A DNA stretch of 64,000 nt from Ascidia mentula (lineage: Eukaryota > Chordata > Ascidiacea > Phlebobranchia > Ascidiidae), in assembly GCA_947561715.1 (NCBI GenBank), contig OX387197.1, positions 24,764,266-24,828,265 of the forward strand, written 5' to 3'. The notes beneath the pieces are model-generated. The model was given only the letters and a program-made list of their open reading frames with translations, searched no databases and was not told the DNA's origin. Below, one piece after another: positions 6,177-56,820 of this stretch. The position numbers and the translations under genes were made by a program. Within the stretch, counting starts at the first letter, position 1. Every line of letters starts with the position of its first letter.

Positions 6177-9100
6177 ATGTTCTTCGAATTATGGATGGTA
6201 ATCTTGATTACAATCGAAGCCAGAGGTAAGAAAATAATATTTTTAAAAAATGTGCACTGCTGTGACAAAACAATATATGCTGTGACGTCATTTTCCTTAC
6301 ATAAAAAATTTACTTAATTGACGAAATAAATGGTCAAAATATTACGTTTTTCGTTCGCACGATACGATTTTTGTGGAAATAATTCAGTATTTTCATAGCG
6401 GTTTGTTGGAAGCGAACAGAAGTTTTCGACCTTAAATAACCTCTATTGCGTCACGCAAATCCATATAACTTTGTGTCGCATTAAACCTGAAGTTTATAGT
6501 AAACGTTTGGACAGGTAGCGTTAGGGTTCGATTGGTCGATAATCTATAGGACGATTAAACGCCCACAACTAACACAATACGTTTTCCCTTGTGTTTCATC
6601 AAAACCCAAATTTTAAGACGTGTCTGCGTATCACGACAACATATCAACAATTGTTAACTGGTATCTGTTGGATGTATTGGTTCCTATACACCGGCCCTTG
6701 GAACATATGGGACCAATTGCACTACAACAAGCCACGCGCTTGAAGAACGGGGCCACAGTTTACCATGAAAAAAGTGCTTTTGGATATTGTAATGACCTTG
6801 TTTTAGTGAAGTATAGAGGTATGTAATTGGCCCACATATTCTAGGACCGACTCTAACAATACGTTCGATAATATGTTCTTGAGCGATTGGCTGACACGGG
6901 TAATTCGAAAGGACATTAAAATTTCATATACACAGCGAACGAGGTTAAGTTAAAATACATTTGGGTTGTGAAGTAACGTAGTTGCAAGTATTACGAAAAC
7001 TTGGAGGCAAGTGTTCCACCAAGATTTTTGCCTCACGACAACTTGCATGAAAAGTTTGGTCGAGTTCACGTCGTAGTGGAGTTTTGATTTATAGAAGATT
7101 ATATTATACGATCCTTTTGTGGTACGCAAGGGCACAACTAAATGCGCACTCGATGTTTTAGCTACACGCCTTGTCACATCCTATACATCCGCACATAAAT
7201 TCGAGTCCCAGGCGTTTTACAGCATCACCCGCGCACGTCACATTTTATCAAAGGTACAGCAAACATCGGCCGAGCGGTCTGGGTCGGCCGTCGTCATTAC
7301 GCCGACAACACGACTTGGATTCCCCGGGGAATCTCGATAAGACGCGCCGGCTTTGCGACAAATCGAATCTGCCGCTCGTTAGGAATCGTACACAACGTAT
7401 TAGAATCGATCGAACGCCGGGTAACCTTAAATTAAAGGGTCGCCGCGACGAGGTCTAATCGTGAGTCTTATTTTGCAAGTGATCAAAATTCTGAATTTAA
7501 TATATTTTTCGGTCGACTGATTCTCTTTTGCTGAAATAAACGCAATAAAAATTATTGGCTCCACATTGCTTATCATATGATTATTGTGACACGGGGCCTG
7601 ACGGCACTATTGGTTGAGCTTTGCTTGGCCATAGTGTTTCCACCTTGTTTTCGCCGTAAGGTTGCACCTAGTTTGGTGCTGAACGGATGACGGTGATTGC
7701 ATAGTCACCACAAAGTGGATTTTTTTGCCTGGCCGTTTGGTCAGCAAAGTCGTCTTATAGTCACACCAGCTGCACTGATGAGACCTTTTAGGTCGAAACA
7801 GTGGCCATCTGTCTGCAGCTTATACACAAGCAATAATATAACCGAATTTGATTTACTGAATAAGAATAAGCAATAACACTTATTTTTCAATTATTTTCAA
7901 ACGAAACTTGCATTTAAAATAACAAAGCAGTCACGCATATAACCACAAATATCTACACTTTATAAGTTGCCTTGCATTGGTATGAGTACATCGTTCAACC
8001 TGATTATATACGGAAATATAATCGAAACTTTCATAACAATTAAGTCACACAATTTCCGCATTGTCAGAGGCTATGGATGATTTTTCTTTGTCAGTTGAAA
8101 TGTTTACATAAACCTTCCTTGCATATCATCAGGTGGTGACACAAAACGACTGGAACCAACTACTCCAAAAGTGACTGCAGTCAGGCAACCTCTTTTCACC
8201 TTGAAACGACCTCCAGAGATTGAAATCAACGCTCCAGATCTCCTCCGCACACGGTATGGTTCGTGTTCTTACGAGGAGATCATGATCGCATCCCAGAAGT
8301 GCGAATCCCTCTTCTTCAAAGGCCTCATGGAGGATAACTGCAGGAGTTGTTCGTACGTTACCCGAATTTACATGAAATTGTCCACTATATCAATAGATAT
8401 CCATTCTGTTTCAATGCGATATTGGCCTTCACAATACAACAGAAGGTTCATGCATAAACTATATACAAAACAAGACTTTAATTTTAAAATAACGTTTTAT
8501 GTAATTTTAGTTCAATGCATGAAGACCTGCAAGTTGACTATAATCCAACATTTATCAATTTCTAATTCATATAGACCTGAGTCTTGTGTTAATGTTACGT
8601 GATGCAATAGTGACCCACACACACGTATACGGGGTATTTATAAATTGTTCCTGTTTCTGTGCAGAAGCCAGTACAAGTCGTTGCAACAATGTGTGAGTCG
8701 GAAATGGCTGAGTTGTAACACTGCGCAAAAAATGACGTCACTTGCAACATTACCTGACAATAGATTCGTTCAGAATTCTGAAGCCGCTTATTGCAATGGC
8801 GGAACGCTTGCACTGCCTGGATCCGGGTACGGAATAATTCAATTTTACTCTTGTGTTACCAAATGTCGCATATATCGTACTTTGATACTAAACGTACTTT
8901 AATGGTTAAACTGGATGCGTAATTTAACGTGAAATTACTTTCGAAATCGTCAATAAGTCGACAGGAATCAGCCTGTCCTGCTTGGTGGCACTCACGAATC
9001 TTCCTTTTCCTGCCTGGAATCCAAAATTACTCACAAAGGAGTGGCTTTGTGAGTAATTTTGGATATTATAAACTTTCTGAAACGGTAAAATCCTCCTTGG

Positions 9101-10845
9101 GTACATTATTTCAACAATATGATGGTTTGGTTGCACATATGTCGAGGCAGAAAAAACTTCGATCACGAGAAACTCTGCCTTTAAAAATGTTTACAAATCT
9201 TGATTGTTTCGACTTTATGACTTCCTCTCAAAATCCCGGTAACCTCTGTCCACAGGCACCCCATCAACTACTGCTCACCCGATTACTACACGGAAGCAAA
9301 ACGGTGTCTCCGCAAATTCCACCAAATGTTCCGGCAAAACGTAACCCACCCAGGCACCTGTGTTGCCTACTTGAGAGCGAGGACGTGTTTCAATCGAGTG
9401 CAAGATAGGTATTGCGAATACCCAAAGTTCCTGCAGGTCATCCTCAACGTAACGAGGGACCTTTACAGGCAAGTAGAATTTGTTAAACGTCCAGTTAAAG
9501 TTAATTTACGCTTGGAGCGCTGTCACCTCTGAACTCGCAGTTTTTAAATATTTGTAATTTTAGCAATGGTTTTGCAACGAATAACGTGGTAGGTGGCGCT
9601 TAACTAAGTTAGGCGTGGAGTTTCGTAGTGAAACTCACATCAGAGTTTATTGTCTGGAAAATACGCCTCCGGTCAATGGACCCGGCTTCCTTTTACTTTC
9701 TTCAGTAATATGATATTCTCAGTAGTTACTTCCAATCAAAATATGTTTATTCTTTTAAGTCTTGCAAATCAAAACTGGTATCCACTACAGAGTTAGCATT
9801 GCATTAATGTCGTGTAGAATTCGCATGGAATAAAAATAGAATAGAATGAGTGACTAAACGCCAGACTGCAACGCAGGCAGTCTGGAGCAGAGGAAACAAT
9901 TAGCACTTAACAGTTTATATGGAAATCATGATTGCTTGCTAGTTCAGCTTGGTAATTACAAGGCCGTTGCAGTTTCGATTACAATATAATGAAAGAAATA
10001 CGGATGAAATATTATTTTCGCTTAAATTCCTTACATTTGACTTGATTTGATCTGTTACCGCCTTACCAACATAACACGTGGCTTTAATGTTCCGTAAATT
10101 TGTAAATCGTCTGCTAAAAGTTTGAACTTACGCCAGTTTTGAACACGTGAATTATTTATAATATAAGACAAGGTTCCGCGATTCCAATATTATCAGAAGC
10201 GACGCAGTAATCTTTCATGCAATCGCATGATTTGCAGGATCGCCCACTGCACAGGTCCTTACTTGGCGATCACAGCGATGTTAACTATCATATAGTGAAA
10301 CTACTGAGCTCCTGTAGCTAAATCGGTAGAGCGTTGGACTTGATTAGCCCAGGGTCATGAGTTCGAACCTCACCAAGAGCTTCAATTGTAAGAATGATAA
10401 ATCACAAAACGTTTTGAACAATATTTAACGTGTGATAATATAATGAAATTTTTGACTGTCAGTTCATAACCGGAATATGTTTAGGTGCTGGAACCCATTC
10501 TGTGTCTGGCAAGCAACCAACCGTGGCGCCAACACACCCTGCGGTCAACAGGCCGTGACGAGACAAGAGTATTACGTAATACGGGGAATACCCGCCGGCT
10601 GCAATCGCAACGAGGCGGCTGAGGTTTCTCAATGGCTCACCATGGACCAGGTAACGTACCGCCCTTCAATCGACCTTCAGAGGACAAGAAAAAGGACTTT
10701 GAACCGCTTGGCGGCGAGGGTCAACAAGAAGTTTGTCCCGCCCGGAAAAATTACCACACCACCTACTGGAAAAGCTGCAAAAAATACTTGTACACTCGGT
10801 GTCGTTGTTTTGCTTGCTGGTCTTCTTACGTTTGTGCTGTGTTAA
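6177..10845 (+). CDS. Secreted, probably GPI-anchored cysteine-rich protein; family not recognised
   Basis: Five exons join in phase: 6177-6225, 8133-8352, 8665-8826, 9256-9468, 10485-10845, giving about 335 residues. Exon 1 encodes a short signal peptide, MFFELWMVILITIEARG. The mature part has two similar cysteine-rich modules. One starts YGSCSYEEIMIASQKC and contains CRSCSSQYKSLQQCV. The other starts INYCSPDYYTEAKRC and contains TCVAYLRARTCF and RYCEYPKFL. A further Cys-rich segment starts RCWNPFC. The C-terminus ends in a basic spacer and the hydrophobic tail CTLGVVVLLAGLLTFVLC right at the stop, the usual GPI-anchor signal. The string CSSQYKSLQQCV resembles GDNF-family receptor alpha domains, but Cys spacing elsewhere does not settle this. 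Intron 4 starts with GC (AG|GCAAGT) rather than GT. Intron 1 carries a hammerhead-bearing repeat. The gene model is well supported by phase; the function is unknown. Confidence 0.75.
7260..7460. other. CpG-rich island inside intron 1
   Basis: This 200-bp stretch is much richer in CG dinucleotides than its AT-rich surroundings and contains the palindrome CCCCGGGG near 7324. It also contains GGCCGAGCGGTCT, which resembles the A-box region of Leu or Ser tRNAs, but I cannot fold a tRNA from it. It may be an unmethylated regulatory patch or a repeat fragment. Confidence 0.3.
7620..7860 (+). repeat. SINE-like dispersed repeat carrying a hammerhead ribozyme (copy 1)
   Basis: The segment shares CACAAAGTGGA, the CTGCACTGATGAGACC block and surrounding sequence with segments near 17450-17640 and 38070-38205. 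Outer limits are approximate because similarity fades. It lies in intron 1 of the GPI-protein gene in the same orientation as that gene. Confidence 0.6.
7768..7820 (+). ncRNA. Hammerhead ribozyme, type I topology, apparently intact
   Basis: All canonical parts are visible. Stem I is AGCTGCA 7768-7774 pairing with TGCAGCT 7814-7820, seven of seven pairs. The core CTGATGA is at 7775-7781. Stem II is GACC 7782-7785 pairing with GGTC 7791-7794. GAA follows at 7795-7797. Stem III is ACAG 7798-7801 pairing with CTGT 7809-7812 around a 7-nt loop. The cleavage-site nucleotide is C7813, preceded by the required U. Hammerheads of this kind are known in animal retroelements and small circular retrozyme RNAs. 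Self-cleavage here is inferred from structure only. Confidence 0.88.
9019..9064. repeat. Perfect 20-bp inverted repeat, 6-nt loop
   Basis: ATCCAAAATTACTCACAAAG at 9019-9038 is followed by GAGTGG and then its exact reverse complement at 9045-9064. It lies in intron 3 of the GPI-protein gene. It could form a stable hairpin in RNA or be the trace of a small inverted-repeat insertion. Confidence 0.9.
10225..10290 (+). repeat. Dispersed repeat, also present near 28610-28700 on the other strand
   Basis: The block containing CAGGTCCTTACTTGGCGATC, preceded by ATGCAATC and AGGATCGCCCA, recurs in reverse orientation at about 28610-28700. The two copies differ by scattered changes and a small indel. 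This copy ends shortly before a tRNA-like segment, so the two could belong to one composite element. Confidence 0.6.
10308..10380 (+). pseudogene. tRNA-like sequence (degenerate tRNA or tRNA-derived SINE head)
   Basis: Acceptor halves GCTCCTG and CAAGAGC pair six of seven. The A box TAGCTAAATCGG and the B box GTTCGAACC both match Pol III consensus. The T arm ATGAG/CTCAC has one mismatch. The anticodon arm TGGAC-TTGATTA-GCCCA also has a mismatch and would give anticodon GAT. One extra base lies between the D and anticodon arms. The mismatches and insertion argue against a working tRNA. Confidence 0.55.
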
Positions 10846-15817: not shown

Positions 15818-18800
15818 TTAAACACAAATGGTAATATACCTCAAGTTTCGCAGTCTCTGGATAGCGCCAGTGAGCAAAGGTTGTTTTTTCTGGGGAGCGG
15901 AATCCAACCTCGGATGACCTTGCGGGAATCGCGCTTTGTAAATACCGGGGTACGACTTTTGGAACTAAATTCATGCACAACACAAGAATGTGCTTTATAA
16001 CTTTAAACATCACGATTTTAGCATCAGCAAATCGCAACGTAAACATCTCCATGGTTACCAGTGGGGTCGTTGCTTAAATACCTGCTTCAGTTTTTTCTTC
16101 TTCTCTTTAACCGAGATCGTTTTGTCTTCAACGATTTTCTGCAGTAGTTCAGTGAGAGCTGTCCTGAGTGCGGACTGACTGTGACTTTCGTATTCTGCGT
16201 TGCTGACCTGGAATAAAGTTGAACATCTAACAATTCAAATCGAGGTATTTTCTGCTAAATCTGTTACTGAGTCTCCGTTAGCCATAGAGACAACAGGCGA
16301 TCGAAGAAAACAAATTTAAGGTGTTTCAATGTTTGAACTATTGTCAAGAAAGTACAAATGGACCCGGTCGAATCATCAATGATTTCTACAAACCTGTTTG
16401 CAGAAAGTGTGTTGTCTCGATAATTTCTTCCGACCAAACGTGTCCTTTTTCATGTTTTCCTGAAAATAAATAGAAAACATCAAATCACCAGGTACTTTTG
16501 TCTGGAGCAAAGTTCCCCGCAACCTTATTTTAATCACGCCACACTTCCAGCGACACACAGCACCCCAAAACACAACTTCTTGATGCAAACCCTTGATTTT
16601 TTTTATTATGACGTAATAAAGATTAATTGTCCAATTGTCGTAAACGTTCAAATATTCCCAGGATAAAATGTACAGTCTCCTACAGAACGCCAGTTACAAT
16701 CAATGGAAAGAAATTTTTTCTATCGGTAAATAACTCGCCAACGTTTTTGATTTCGATTATTTGTTACGTCACAATTACCTTATCGGCCACGGTACGCTGA
16801 ATTTGATTTTGAACCTCTTCTCGAAGTTTATCGGGAACTTTCATCAACACAGCTGCGTGATCGAGCATGAAGCAGAAGACACGCTCCGATAGCTTCGTTC
16901 CTACGCCATCAGACACGTCACGTGGGCGGACGATACAGGAGGTGAATTTTTGGACAAGCTGTGCGGATAACGTTGTAACAATTAGTTGATTTAATAATGC
17001 AAAAACACACAGAGTTGCAGCATTTCAACAAACAGTCTGTTGTACATCCAGGGCTTCCCGAACGCTGGCCCATTTCATTTGAATACAATTTTTCGCGAAT
17101 TTTTGTGTTGGACATTTTTCTAATTTTCATATTTTGATGAAAGAGCAATTTTGCTATAACGACTTAAAAACGGGCATATATGGTGACCCCCATCTACGTC
17201 CCAGGAAGCGTAGTTTGAGAAGTGCAATTAAAGGGCAGGGAAATTGCTTACGTCTCATAAGATTCATCGTTCGACCCCCAGTTTTGGAAGCCTCCTGACA
17301 CAACTTACCAATGAACGCAGTGAGAGATGTTCGTCAAACGTGATAAGATGGGGGTTGCTCAACATTTTCGACAACAAGCGGAGAAGCAAATGGAGTTTTC
17401 TGCATAAAGTGTCGATAATTTTTTAACTGAAGAGCTTTTTGTGTTGATTGTTACCTAGTTTGGTACCCAACATATCGACGATTGACCGTAAGGTACAACA
17501 AAGTGGAAATCTGTGTGCCTGCTAGTCTACCAGCCAGCACAGTGCCACATCAACAGCTGCACTGATGAGACCTTACAGGTCGAAACAGTGCGTGTATACA
17601 CCCTGTCTGCAGCTCTCATTGATCATTATGGCTCTTTTGCGCATATAAAGTGCTTTTTAATTTAAAAAAAAGTATTTTTGGAAGTTTTGGTATTAGACGC
17701 GGGAATTATGCAATGTAGTAAACAGATAACCTTTAACCTTATTTTAACGTAACGAAACAATATTATTTATCAAGTGATTTCATACAAATATTTAAATATT
17801 ATTGGTAGAAGAATTCAACATCATTCAAACACAAATGCTTTATTTTTTGGTCATCGCTTTCTACACAAAAACCATTAATGCCCACTATTTAAAGTGAAAA
17901 AGAAATTCGGTAATTCGGAATAAAAATTGCAATCTCAACATTAAACCTCTACAGATGCGGCCTCCAACACAATAAATACCTCCTGTTTGATGGCGGGAGA
18001 AGCAGAAGACAAAGTTGGAAGGCCTCGGTTGAATGAGGCCGAACTCCCTGTTGTTCACCTGTGTAATATTAAGAAACATAAATAATCAATATTGCCAATA
18101 ATGTTTCAAGTGAGCTGCAAACAGGGCCAGCAGTGTTTTGACCTATTTGGTTTCATGCAGTGCATTGGTGAAGTTACGGCAATCTTGCCAGCTAAGCAGC
18201 CAGTATCAAGAAATCTTATGGGCCAAACAATGGCACTGCAACTAACTTAATACATATAACATTATTAACACACCCGTAAACGCGCATATTGTAAATACTC
18301 AATAAGTTTTGTTGCAATAAAAGTTCAATAAATAAAACCAACCAATAGCAACGCGTTGTTTTCGCGCCAAATCCAGAGCCGCGCTCAGGGGCGACTGGGG
18401 TTGAAAAGGGGTGACAACACTTGGACGACTCGCGCTCTTGTGACGTAACAAAGGAGCGGCGTCGGGTTGGAATTCGGAAGACGGTGGGAGGGGTTGGGGA
18501 GGGCAGGTTTTCCTTCGTGGGTGAAGACTGCTGTAAGATCTGTGTCATTTTCAAAGAATAATGGCTTTTAGTATTTTTAATGATAAAATTTGTGGTTTTG
18601 AGTTTGGGAGTCGCGTTCAAGGCGTTGCTGACGTTCTAATTATAAAAAGTCGCCTGCAACTATAACGCTGTGAAAATTATATAAATAAATAAACAGGAAA
18701 TCACATTTGGCGTGCAACTCTGTCGTGCTTTACACCAATATTACTAAGTGATTGCAAGTTTTGCATAAATACTAGCAAAGTTCAATTATAATAACAGCCA

Positions 18801-38069: not shown

Positions 38070-38205
38070 ACAATGGTTAACAAGGTCTGTATAGTCACCA
38101 CAAAGTGGAAATCTTGCTTGGCTATTTAGCTGACAAAATCGTTCAATGTCACACCATAGCTGCACTGGTGAGACCTTAGGAGGAAACAGTAGCCCGGTCA
38201 TCTTT
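38070..38205 (+). repeat. Decayed copy 3 of the hammerhead-bearing repeat
   Basis: It shares ATAGTCACCACAAAGTGGA with copy 1, then GTCACACCATAGCTGCACTG. The ribozyme core reads CTGGTGA instead of CTGATGA, the stem II return strand is changed, and the stem III and stem I return strands are not recognisable. It should be catalytically dead. Confidence 0.65.
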
Positions 38206-53926: not shown

Positions 53927-56820
53927 TCATTCTTCGAAACACGGCGAATTACATTGCACAATATCACGAACGTTATTTCCCGACATGTCAATTAACTGAT
54001 TATTGTGACGCTTCCAAAGAAATTTACAGTTTACACGTACAAGATAAGTCAGTGGCCCGAGAACTTTTTCAATGACGCCAACTGCCCAACGCTTACTACG
54101 AGCGCGATAATCTAGGGTTGCCACTTTTTGACCAACTTCAAATGTTCGTGGCCGTTGCCCGTGGTGTTTGTCGATGTGTTTTTCTATACATTTCTCGACC
54201 CTTCCCTCTCCCGTGGGTTGAACAAGATCCAGGCGGGTTCTCAGATTGCGCTTGATGAACAGCTTGGCAGGGGACTCTCCTAACAATGCATGAGGAGCAT
54301 TGCGGTAGGACAGCAAAAATCTTGATAGTTTGCTTTTGATGCTTCCGGTTTCGTTTGACATCGACTGTAAACCTTTCTTTACGGTTTGTACAAATCTCTC
54401 CGCTTGGCCGTTTGTGGCTGGTGAGGATGGAGCAGTCTTCATATGACGAATACCGTTCATCTTCAGGAACGTCTGGAACTCCTGTGAAATGAATTGAGGA
54501 CCATTGTCAGAAACAATTTTTTCAGGAATACCGTTCCTCCAAAAAAGCGGTGCGAAGTTCGTCTATAGTTGCAGCCGCCGTGGCGGAACGCATTGGGATT
54601 ACCTCCGGCCACTTAGAATAGGCATCCACGATCACCAAAAGCATGTGGTTTTCCACAGGACCTGCAAAGTCTATATGTATGCGTTGCCATGGTTTAACAC
54701 AAGTTTGCCAGGGGTGGTATTTTACTACAGGTGGTACGTTTCTATTTTGTAAGCACCCCGAACAGTTTTTGGACAATTCTTCAATATGGTTATCAAGGTT
54801 GGGCCACCAGACGTAATTTCGTGCGATTTGTACATTTTCACAACACCCAGGTGTCCGTTGTGTAATTCCTGCAAAATAGAGGACCTTAGATTTTCTGGAA
54901 TAACCACTCTGGGTCCCCAAACCAAACATCCGTAAAATGTGGATAACTCATTTCTTCGATAATAATATGGCATATTGGCACTTTCCGGCACCCAATTGCC
55001 CGATGTCACGCAAGCAAACACCCGTGACAAAATTTTATCTGAACGTGTGTGTTTAGCAATATCCTCGGCCGTTACAGGCAAAAAGTCAATCTGCTTTAAA
55101 TAAAAATTGCTTGCAGCATCGCACGAGGTTTCAGTGGAACCTTGCGGTAATCTAGACAAACAATCAGCGTTGCCGTGTTGAGTTGTACTGCGGTATTCGA
55201 TGGAATAATTGAGGCCTTGTTGGATGAAATATAGAAGAGAGAGGCTCGTGGTCAGTCACTAGCGTAAAATGTCGACCAAACAAGTAAATGTGAAACTTTT
55301 GCACATCCCACACAATTGCTAAAGCTTCTTTATCAATTTGCGAATAGTTTTTCTCGGACTTCGACAGAGATCTCGAGATGTACGCAATGGGTCGCTCAAT
55401 GCCTTCCGGCATTACATGTGACATAACTGCACCAATGCCGTACGGCGATGCATCACATGCTAACTTAATTGGCAAATTTACGTCGTACTGCGTAAGAACC
55501 TTATCAGAAGCCATCAGTTTACGAGCTTTGCAAATGACTGAATGCATTCCAAGGACCATGCAGTTCCATCTACGACCTTTCTCTAAAAGTTCACATAACG
55601 GATGCAACAAAGATGAAAGATTGGGCCAAAATCGATGATAATAATGAACTATAGGCCAAAAAACGAACGAAGCTGGGACACATTCTGTGGGGTCGGACAA
55701 CTTGTGACCGCCTTAATTTTATCTTGTGATTTATGCAATCCCTCTTTATCTACAACATGGCCACAAAATTCAATTTGATTCTTGAAAAACTCGCACTTGT
55801 TCGGATTGACTTTTAACCCATATGTTCTAGATCTGTTGCTCCAGTTATTATCATATCATCCAATAAACATTGTACTCCTTTTAACCCTTGCAACACTTGA
55901 TCCATAGCCTTTTGCCATAATGCCGGGGCTGAAGCTACCCCAAAAACTAGGCGGTTGTAACGAAAGAGTCCTTTGTGCGTATTAATGGTAAGCAAATGTT
56001 TACATTCGTCTTCCATTGTCGTTTGCAAATACGCATTTTTTAAATCCAGTTTTGTAAAACGATTTCCTCCAGCTAACGTGGCAAAAATATCAGTTACTTT
56101 AGGCAAGGGATATTGCTCTATGTTTAAGACTGGATTTAAAGTTACTTTAAAATCTCCGCACAATCTTACTGAGCCATCCTATTTCTGCCACACACGCTCT
56201 TCGGTTTCTTAGATTTTCATTTCTACTAAACTTGTTAATGGACACGTCATTATTTCTCATTATTTTTGTATCAGCATCGGCTTTTTCCAAAGTGTTAGCA
56301 ATTAGCACGGCTTGGGAAAAGTTCAAATTGCTTTCAATTAACAATCGCCGCTGTGTGGTCTCCGAAAGTATACCACAAACAAATCTTTGAGTTAATGCAT
56401 CGTCCAAAAAATCACCGTTTACAGATTCTCCAGGAATTTGATCACGCTTTCCAAATTTAAAACGTTCAGAAATTTTGAGGGTCGTAGGGTAAAAATGTTC
56501 TGTTAAAATTTTCACAATTTCCTTGTACGTTTTTGAGTAAGTTTTGGAGGGTGCAACCAAATCTTTCAAAAGACTGTATGTCTTAGCACCAACAAAATTC
56601 AAAAGCGCCGGTACTTTTTTTGTCATTGGAAATGTCATTAATTGTGAAGAACTGTTCAATACTTTCCACGTACGTTGGCCATGTTTCCGTTTCAGCACAA
56701 AATTCACAAACACTTCCCAAGTAAGACGATCCCATCCTCGTCGCTAGTGTAAAGTATTTGCCTTCCGGGACAGCCACATACACGCTTTCCTCGAGTAATT
56801 TATTGTAATGACCTCTCCGG
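53927..56820 (-). mobile_element. Fossil Ty3/gypsy LTR-retrotransposon, broken
   Basis: In minus-strand order the remains include a gag-like part (about 56150-56780), reverse transcriptase (about 55810-56160), RNase H (about 55160-55700), integrase zinc-binding and core regions (about 54520-55160), and the integrase C-terminal part (about 53930-54460). The family is Ty3/gypsy of the kind common in invertebrates. It is degraded, with several interruptions (roughly half a dozen). No flanking LTRs or target-site duplication were recognised, so it may be end-truncated. Its domains are still easily readable, which suggests moderate rather than great age. Confidence 0.9.

What the first reader, a model, noticed from the sequence alone, without database searches (positions are those of the whole stretch)
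7768..7820. Complete hammerhead ribozyme in a SINE-like repeat, in sense orientation inside an intron
Seen directly: CTGATGA core, four-pair stem II, GAA, four-pair stem III with the U-C cleavage step, and a seven-pair stem I. Known: hammerheads occur in Penelope-like elements, some SINEs and small circular retrozyme RNAs. Inference: because it lies in intron 1 in the gene's own orientation, each pre-mRNA would carry a self-cleaving intron. That could release RNA, affect splicing, or serve retrozyme circularisation.
Basis: partly seen in the sequence, partly recalled or inferred. Interest (0 to 1): 0.88.

Follow-up and report, generated by a model that had tools for sequence, protein, structure and literature searches.

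The report
Sea-squirt retrozyme with hammerhead ribozyme
The sequence is one copy of a small element with a complete self-cutting RNA motif, present in very many copies in a sea-squirt genome, and the way its copies are joined to the chromosome looks like the work of another mobile element, Penelope, which had so far only been a candidate for copying such elements.

Summary
The hammerhead at 7768-7820 is real as a motif: complete type I, cut site 7813^7814; Rfam does not accept it at threshold. It forms the 3' part of a one-unit copy (7549-7829; target duplication GCAATAA at 7542-7548 and 7830-7836) of a 285-nt, often tandem repeat in an ascidian genome. The 25-nt core has 2,376 matches at up to two mismatches, 0 in the reversed control. 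It is not a SINE but an animal (non-LTR) retrozyme. The window also holds a second family with an intact hammerhead (17440-17648) and a decayed copy (38088-38194).

The new part is how copies end. In both families cDNA starts at one of two sites, 11-18 or 37-58 nt past the cut, typically 28-30 nt apart. All 28 two-armed copies sampled are head-to-head; in family 1, 19 of 20 scorable carry one end of each kind. Most have short target duplications. That is the published "tail" signature of Penelope-like elements (PLEs), and PLEs of this genome show it. PLEs were so far a proposed mobiliser of animal retrozymes. The template ran through the cut site: a circle (favoured) or uncut multimer. Cleavage and circles are untested; the intron claim is unproven.

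The parts
7768..7820 (+). type I hammerhead ribozyme motif; predicted cut 7813^7814
   Evidence: reading; chance control; genome count
7549..7829 (+). one-unit (one-lap) copy of retrozyme family 1, about u1-u282 of a 285-nt unit; ribozyme near its 3' end
   Evidence: BLAST gives 7551-7829 = u3-u282; first two bases by reading between target duplication and u3
7542..7548 (+). left target-site duplication GCAATAA
   Evidence: reading; (L001 row)
7830..7836 (+). right target-site duplication GCAATAA
   Evidence: reading; (L001 row)
17440..17648 (+). 5'-truncated copy of retrozyme family 2 (293-nt unit), intact hammerhead motif 17555-17614, predicted cut 17607^17608; the match runs some 8 nt further
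38088..38194 (+). decayed retrozyme copy, 79% to unit u151-259; core reads CTGGTGA and the GAAA side is altered

Best explanation
The feature is the ribozyme of a non-autonomous animal retrozyme that is copied into the genome by the reverse transcriptase / GIY-YIG endonuclease of Penelope-like elements (PLEs). Model: tandem copies are transcribed; the hammerheads cut the RNA into 285-nt units that are closed into circles (inferred from published animal retrozymes, not tested here). The PLE enzyme nicks A+T-rich DNA on both strands and starts cDNA at either of two RNA sites, 11-18 or 37-58 nt past the ribozyme cut, one site for each DNA end when both ends are extended (end positions shown; enzyme identity and the step itself inferred). 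Reverse transcription runs through the closed cut site for part of a lap, one lap or several, giving truncated copies, monomers such as the window copy, or tandem arrays, joined head-to-head when both DNA ends were extended (architecture shown). The copy at 7549-7829 is such a one-lap insertion and has no demonstrated role in the neighbouring gene.
For: Repeat and copy number. Units of 285 and 293 nt, tandem and inverted. Two groups of 3' ends, counted from the cut: family 1 (33 loci, 54 ends) 32 at 14-18 nt, 21 at 37-58, 1 at 269; family 2 (17 loci, 24 ends) 6 at 11-13, 16 at 38-51, 1 at 1 and 1 at 69. All 21 + 7 composites are head-to-head. One end of each kind: 19 of 20 scorable of 21 family-1 composites (expected 10.0 if independent, P 2e-5); 4 of 5 scorable of 7 in family 2 (expected 2.4, P 0.17, not significant). 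Shared words of 7 nt or more at the insertion ends: 28 of 33 (mismatched flanks mean 2.6, max 7) and 12 of 19 (mean 0.6, max 3). Flanks are 71% A+T, window 62%. PLEs of this genome: 150 GIY-YIG matches over cut-off among 150 scored of 382 candidates; three frames scanned match RVT_1 and GIY-YIG, one of them below both cut-offs; all five fetched PLE regions are head-to-head and L060, L061 also tandem. One PLE family shows two 3' ends about 38 nt apart: of 54 rows (40 of 390 candidates scored) 29 end at q301-313, 9 at q263-268, 15 run on to q414-421, 1 ends at q329. Published PLE tail: PMC11167929 (parts 1-2 of 4 read) and PMC3846280 (passages).
Against: No test of cleavage, circles or enzyme. 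Rfam does not accept the motif at threshold, and neither the lowest-energy linear fold nor, on my reading, the predicted circles contain the whole native ribozyme. I saw no sequence likeness between retrozyme and PLE tails (by eye only), so how the PLE enzyme would recognise the RNA is unexplained. The retrozyme spacing of 28-30 nt is at or just under the published 30-40. Circle against uncut multimer is open: family 1 has a one-lap class (6 of 12 one-armed copies are 280-282 nt; one of them, L015, has about 8 nt of inverted unit on reading), family 2 has none (0 of 10). Units within one array are not more alike than units of different loci (0.035 same strand and 0.023 opposite arms against 0.031; 0.025 and 0.022 against 0.026). 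In the anole PLE the ribozyme was not needed for insertion in vitro. Loci are best-scoring ones, not a random sample.
Confidence: 0.78

Rival explanations
1. It is a retrozyme, but its template is an uncleaved multimeric transcript, and the ribozyme plays no part in copying.
For: Arrays could be transcribed as multimers; the anole PLE inserts RNA with dead ribozymes in vitro (PMC11167929); array units are no more alike than units of different loci.
Against: Five or six family-1 copies stop after exactly one lap, which a multimer does not explain. In array L028 the variant 211T>C is in 4 of 4 units on both arms and in only 2 of 33 loci. Published animal retrozymes are found as circles. Among motifs that keep stem II, both core segments are intact in 57 of 67 and 25 of 26.
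Confidence: 0.25
2. It is a SINE-like element: a defined linear RNA from its own promoter, copied by a LINE.
For: The window copy is a monomer with both ends defined and a short target duplication.
Against: Multi-unit arrays with the same junction, head-to-head composites, two alternative 3' ends, and no A-rich tail on reading of the ends; no tRNA match in the element. Pol III boxes were not scanned for separately.
Confidence: 0.03
3. It is the solo terminal repeat (pLTR) of an autonomous PLE, not a separate element.
For: PLE pLTRs are reported to carry hammerheads; same end geometry. In L064 a decayed related hammerhead (81% over 53 nt) lies about 460 bp 3' of a PLE frame in the same orientation.
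Against: No match to the unit in L060-L063 beyond words of 12-18 nt. The hammerhead-like motifs of these PLEs read GAAACGTC/T (L062-L064), GAAAGCTT (L060) or GAAATATA (L061), without room for a stem III hairpin (by eye), unlike the 4-bp stem III here. Arrays sampled consist of the 285- or 293-nt unit.
Confidence: 0.08
4. The hammerhead was retained for host use: it cuts the intron of the overlapping gene to control splicing.
For: The motif is intact and may lie in an intron.
Against: The copy is about 94-96% identical to the other full-length copies listed, and intact cores are the rule in the copies sampled, so no retention needs explaining; gene structure not established.
Confidence: 0.03

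Closest known systems
Animal non-LTR retrozymes with type I hammerheads (coral, mussel, axolotl; PMC7229834, abstract and sections 13, 14, 17 read)
   Same: type I hammerhead, tandem repeats of 150-450 bp, G+C below 50%, no LTR, target duplications over 4 bp, PLEs in the same genome
   Different: ascidian host, not named in its main text; head-to-head composites and a two-site 3' end are shown here, while 'inverted' and 'tail' occur 0 times in its main text (supplement not seen)
Penelope-like elements: anole Poseidon (PMC11167929, parts 1-2 of 4 read) and bdelloid Pen families (PMC3846280, passages)
   Same: head-to-head inverted copies, partial tandems, 8-10-bp target duplications, optional 31- or 30-40-bp tail on one end, hammerhead near the RT start
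   Different: the retrozyme unit has no reading frame and a different hammerhead, with a 4-bp stem III
Plant LTR retrozymes (PMC4918200, search listing only)
   Same: hammerhead, non-autonomous, circular RNA
   Different: type III ribozymes in LTRs and 4-bp target duplications (as told in PMC7229834), Gypsy machinery

Membership tests
animal non-LTR retrozyme | type I hammerhead with complete core | tested here: met
   but Rfam threshold not reached
animal non-LTR retrozyme | multi-copy tandem repeats of 150-450 bp | tested here: met
   285 and 293 bp
animal non-LTR retrozyme | G+C below 50%, no LTR | tested here: met
   0.46 and 0.48; one-armed copies without flanking repeats. PBS and PPT were not scanned for
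animal non-LTR retrozyme | target duplications longer than 4 bp | tested here: met
animal non-LTR retrozyme | highly self-paired circle that leaves the ribozyme free to fold | tested here: inconclusive
   circular folds z -2.99 and -3.04 against 100 shuffles, 68% paired, but the predicted circles do not show the whole native ribozyme
animal non-LTR retrozyme | self-cleavage and circular RNA in tissue | not testable with these tools
   no RNA data
mobilised by a PLE | two adjacent 3' ends 30-40 nt apart (tail) | tested here: met
   about 30 and 28 nt, at or just under the published range; one PLE family here about 38 nt
mobilised by a PLE | head-to-head inverted copies, tail on one side | tested here: met
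   28 of 28 composites head-to-head; 19 of 20 and 4 of 5 scorable one-of-each
mobilised by a PLE | A+T-rich target | tested here: inconclusive
   flanks 0.71 A+T against window 0.62; no intergenic control
autonomous PLE | RT + GIY-YIG reading frame in the unit | tested here: not met
   units of 285/293 nt; no frame of 90 aa or more overlaps 7549-7829
tRNA-derived SINE | tRNA-like head | tested here: not met
   no tRNA match within 7549-7829
Rfam RF00163 / RF00008 | score at gathering threshold | tested here: not met

The most novel reading that the evidence does not exclude
Animal retrozymes are parasites of Penelope-like elements: the PLE enzyme copies a ribozyme-made RNA circle, starting at two fixed sites just past the ribozyme cut, one site per broken DNA end, and one lap or several laps of the circle explain monomers and tandem arrays alike. 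The ribozyme's purpose would be to make the circle and to lie beside the start sites. A PLE-derived 358-bp mini-unit array in the same genome would show how such a parasite can be born from a PLE.
Probability: 0.6. Interest if true: 0.75.

Novelty: new member of a known kind. Interest (0 to 1): 0.6.

Why it matters
Which enzyme copies animal retrozymes has been open; PLEs were named as a strong candidate because both carry type I hammerheads, occur in tandem and co-exist (PMC7229834). Here the insertion ends themselves carry the PLE signature, in two retrozyme families and in a PLE family of the same genome, so the question becomes directly testable with one purified enzyme and one RNA. The one-of-each rule also gives a geometric clue to how a PLE joins both ends of a break.

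Tried and rejected
Core against loop substitution within families: copies too similar to decide. Within-array against between-array identity as a test for circles: no difference. L038 as a true composite: its 30-nt flanks are reverse complements of each other (read; a first check was off by one base and is not used), so it is probably an inverted genomic duplication; it is still counted among the 20, as the one exception, and its shared variant is not used. Covariation of the stems: an alignment of 7 hammerheads was made, but the intact families share the same stems, so nothing could be tested; no covariance model was built. Gene identification: nothing above cut-off. Assembly-size literature search for the species: nothing useful. 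End counts were not used, because that query itself stops at the tail. My three-helix finder found no hammerhead in L039-L058 with strict rules nor in L060-L064 with relaxed rules, and Rfam found none in L060-L064; the minimal motifs of the PLEs were picked out by eye from CTGANGA...GAA hits, and no activity or dimer fold was tested.

Sampling: family-1 loci are 30 cut out (40 of 1,936 candidates scored) and 8 (40 of 1,744), reduced to 33 by dropping L002, L009, L021, L030, L034 as overlaps. Family 2: 20 loci (40 of 1,858 scored); L068 dropped as overlap; L076 and L084 dropped as duplicated loci for (17 left), but both were still (19). These samples favour copies close to the query. In one search a shared word could reach up to 4 bases into the element on either side, so its lengths (up to 15) are upper bounds.

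Full report
Observation. A simple finder gives two such motifs in the window and, at 11 or more pairs, none in 20 random sequences of the same size and first-order composition. Rfam does not list it at threshold; the best sub-threshold matches are Hammerhead_3 at 21.6 bits and RAGATH-1-hammerhead at 19.8. The type I model over the genome does not list this site, but only 73 of 27,659 candidates were scored and its 32 matches are at the level of the control genomes. The predicted lowest-energy fold is a slightly more stable alternative. So the motif is complete, but its activity is untested.

Host. COX1 on contig C79 looks right only with AGA/AGG read as glycine (code 13; judged by eye against the conserved protein, and that this code marks ascidians is recalled), so the 195.8-Mb genome is taken to be an ascidian's. 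The species is not known to me.

The repeat. BLAST and genome search show that 7549-7829 is one copy of a repeat. Elsewhere the unit recurs every 284-285 bp in arrays. The core pattern has 2,376 matches at two mismatches or fewer, control 0; the count covers family 2 as well, whose core differs at two of the 25 bases. The window copy is flanked by GCAATAA on both sides. A second family (293-nt unit) has a copy at 17440-17648 with an intact hammerhead motif, 72% alike to family 1 over 143 nt, and a decayed copy lies at 38088-38194.

Ends. For 33 non-redundant family-1 loci and 17 family-2 loci I placed each outward end on the unit. 3' ends fall into two groups: 14-18 and 37-58 nt past the ribozyme cut in family 1 (32 and 21 of 54 ends, 1 elsewhere), 11-13 and 38-51 nt in family 2 (6 and 16 of 24, 2 elsewhere). 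The commonest values, 16 and 46 in family 1 and 13 and 41 in family 2, lie 30 and 28 nt apart. Every two-armed insertion sampled, 21 and 7, is head-to-head. In family 1, 19 of the 20 with scorable ends have one end of each kind (expected 10 if independent, P 2e-5); in family 2, 4 of 5 (not significant). One-armed family-1 copies use the near site in 11 of 12, one-armed family-2 copies the far site in 9 of 10. The flanks share words of 7 nt or more in 28 of 33 and 12 of 19 loci, against means of 2.6 and 0.6 for mismatched flanks.

Reading of the ends. Both start sites lie just 3' of the ribozyme cut, and the cDNA then runs back through the cut site. A linear unit released by the ribozyme would end at the cut, so it cannot be the template; the template was closed or never cut. 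Five or six one-armed family-1 copies are exactly one lap long (280-282 of 285 nt), which fits a circle; family 2 has no such class, and array units are not more alike than units of different loci, so an uncut multimer is not excluded.

Penelope. The anole PLE enzyme cuts both strands of A+T-rich DNA and starts cDNA at two adjacent internal RNA sites; the stretch between them is the optional 30-40-bp tail of PLE insertions (PMC11167929, parts 1 and 2 of 4 read). That paper saw no difference in start site between the two strands in vitro. Bdelloid PLEs have an inverted pLTR, a 9-bp target duplication and a 31-bp tail at one of the inverted pLTRs (PMC3846280, passages). The retrozymes here have all of these: head-to-head arms, target duplications, and a 28-30-nt tail on one arm. 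PLEs abound in the same genome (150 GIY-YIG matches over cut-off among 150 scored of 382 candidates). Of five PLE regions fetched, all are head-to-head and L060 and L061 also tandem. Three frames were scanned and match RVT_1 and GIY-YIG, that of L061 below both cut-offs. CTGANGA...GAA motifs that look like the minimal PLE hammerhead lie near the frames by eye, but neither my finder nor Rfam accepts them. For the PLE family of L063 the genome rows end at two sites about 38 nt apart (29 and 9 of 54 rows, 40 of 390 candidates scored). From those rows I could pair seven two-armed loci by reading (six PLEs and the mini-unit array named below); all seven have one end of each kind.

What this adds. 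The 2020 retrozyme paper named PLEs as a strong candidate because both carry type I hammerheads, occur in tandem and co-exist. Its main text holds neither 'inverted' nor 'tail' nor 'ascidian', 'tunicate' or 'urochordate'. Searches for retrozyme with ascidian (0 papers), hammerhead ribozyme with Ciona (5 papers) and retrozyme with Penelope since 2020 (9 papers, of which I saw sections or passages of two) showed no report of this signature in what I saw; one ascidian genome paper counts 9 type I hammerhead loci (PMC8704543, passages). The library lacks most subscription papers, and the 2014 PLE-hammerhead paper was not held.

The gene. An open stretch with splice-like borders begins near 8132 on the same strand, but the translated pieces gave no Pfam match over cut-off, and no first exon was shown. 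The copy may well be intronic; with one ribozyme it could at most cut the transcript once. Nothing sets its core apart from that of the other copies sampled, so a host role needs no invoking.

Noticed in passing
17440-17648 (+): Second retrozyme family with an intact hammerhead motif (predicted cut 17607^17608), not named in the finding; used here as a second family.
   Followed up: yes
38088-38194 (+): Decayed retrozyme copy; the other 39 of 40 scored matches in the genome are 79-88% alike, so an older family.
   Followed up: partly
L085 (G000:C70:3831200-3833800) and rows C70:3829790-3833654: Array of 358-bp units made of a PLE's terminal repeat, hammerhead-like motif and first codons, head-to-head, with outward ends at the two PLE end sites: a PLE-derived mini-element laid out like a retrozyme. 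One locus only.
   Followed up: partly
L064:1575-1625 (-): Decayed hammerhead related to family 1 about 460 bp past the end of a PLE frame, same orientation; chance neighbour or shared ancestry unclear.
   Followed up: partly
L038: Retrozyme pair whose 30-nt flanks are reverse complements of each other, as after an inverted duplication of the locus (by reading).
   Followed up: no
10308-10381 (+): tRNA gene match, 39.5 bits, between open frames of the unnamed gene on the same strand.
   Followed up: no
53927-56743 (-): Broken retroelement-like frames; the piece 54522-54947 has weak integrase matches below cut-off.
   Followed up: no
G000:C67:21047249, C72:2640110, C73:3735722 and others: Sub-threshold type I hammerhead model matches (best 26.7 bits); the same search rings in 11 of 14 control genomes, so most may be noise.
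   Followed up: no
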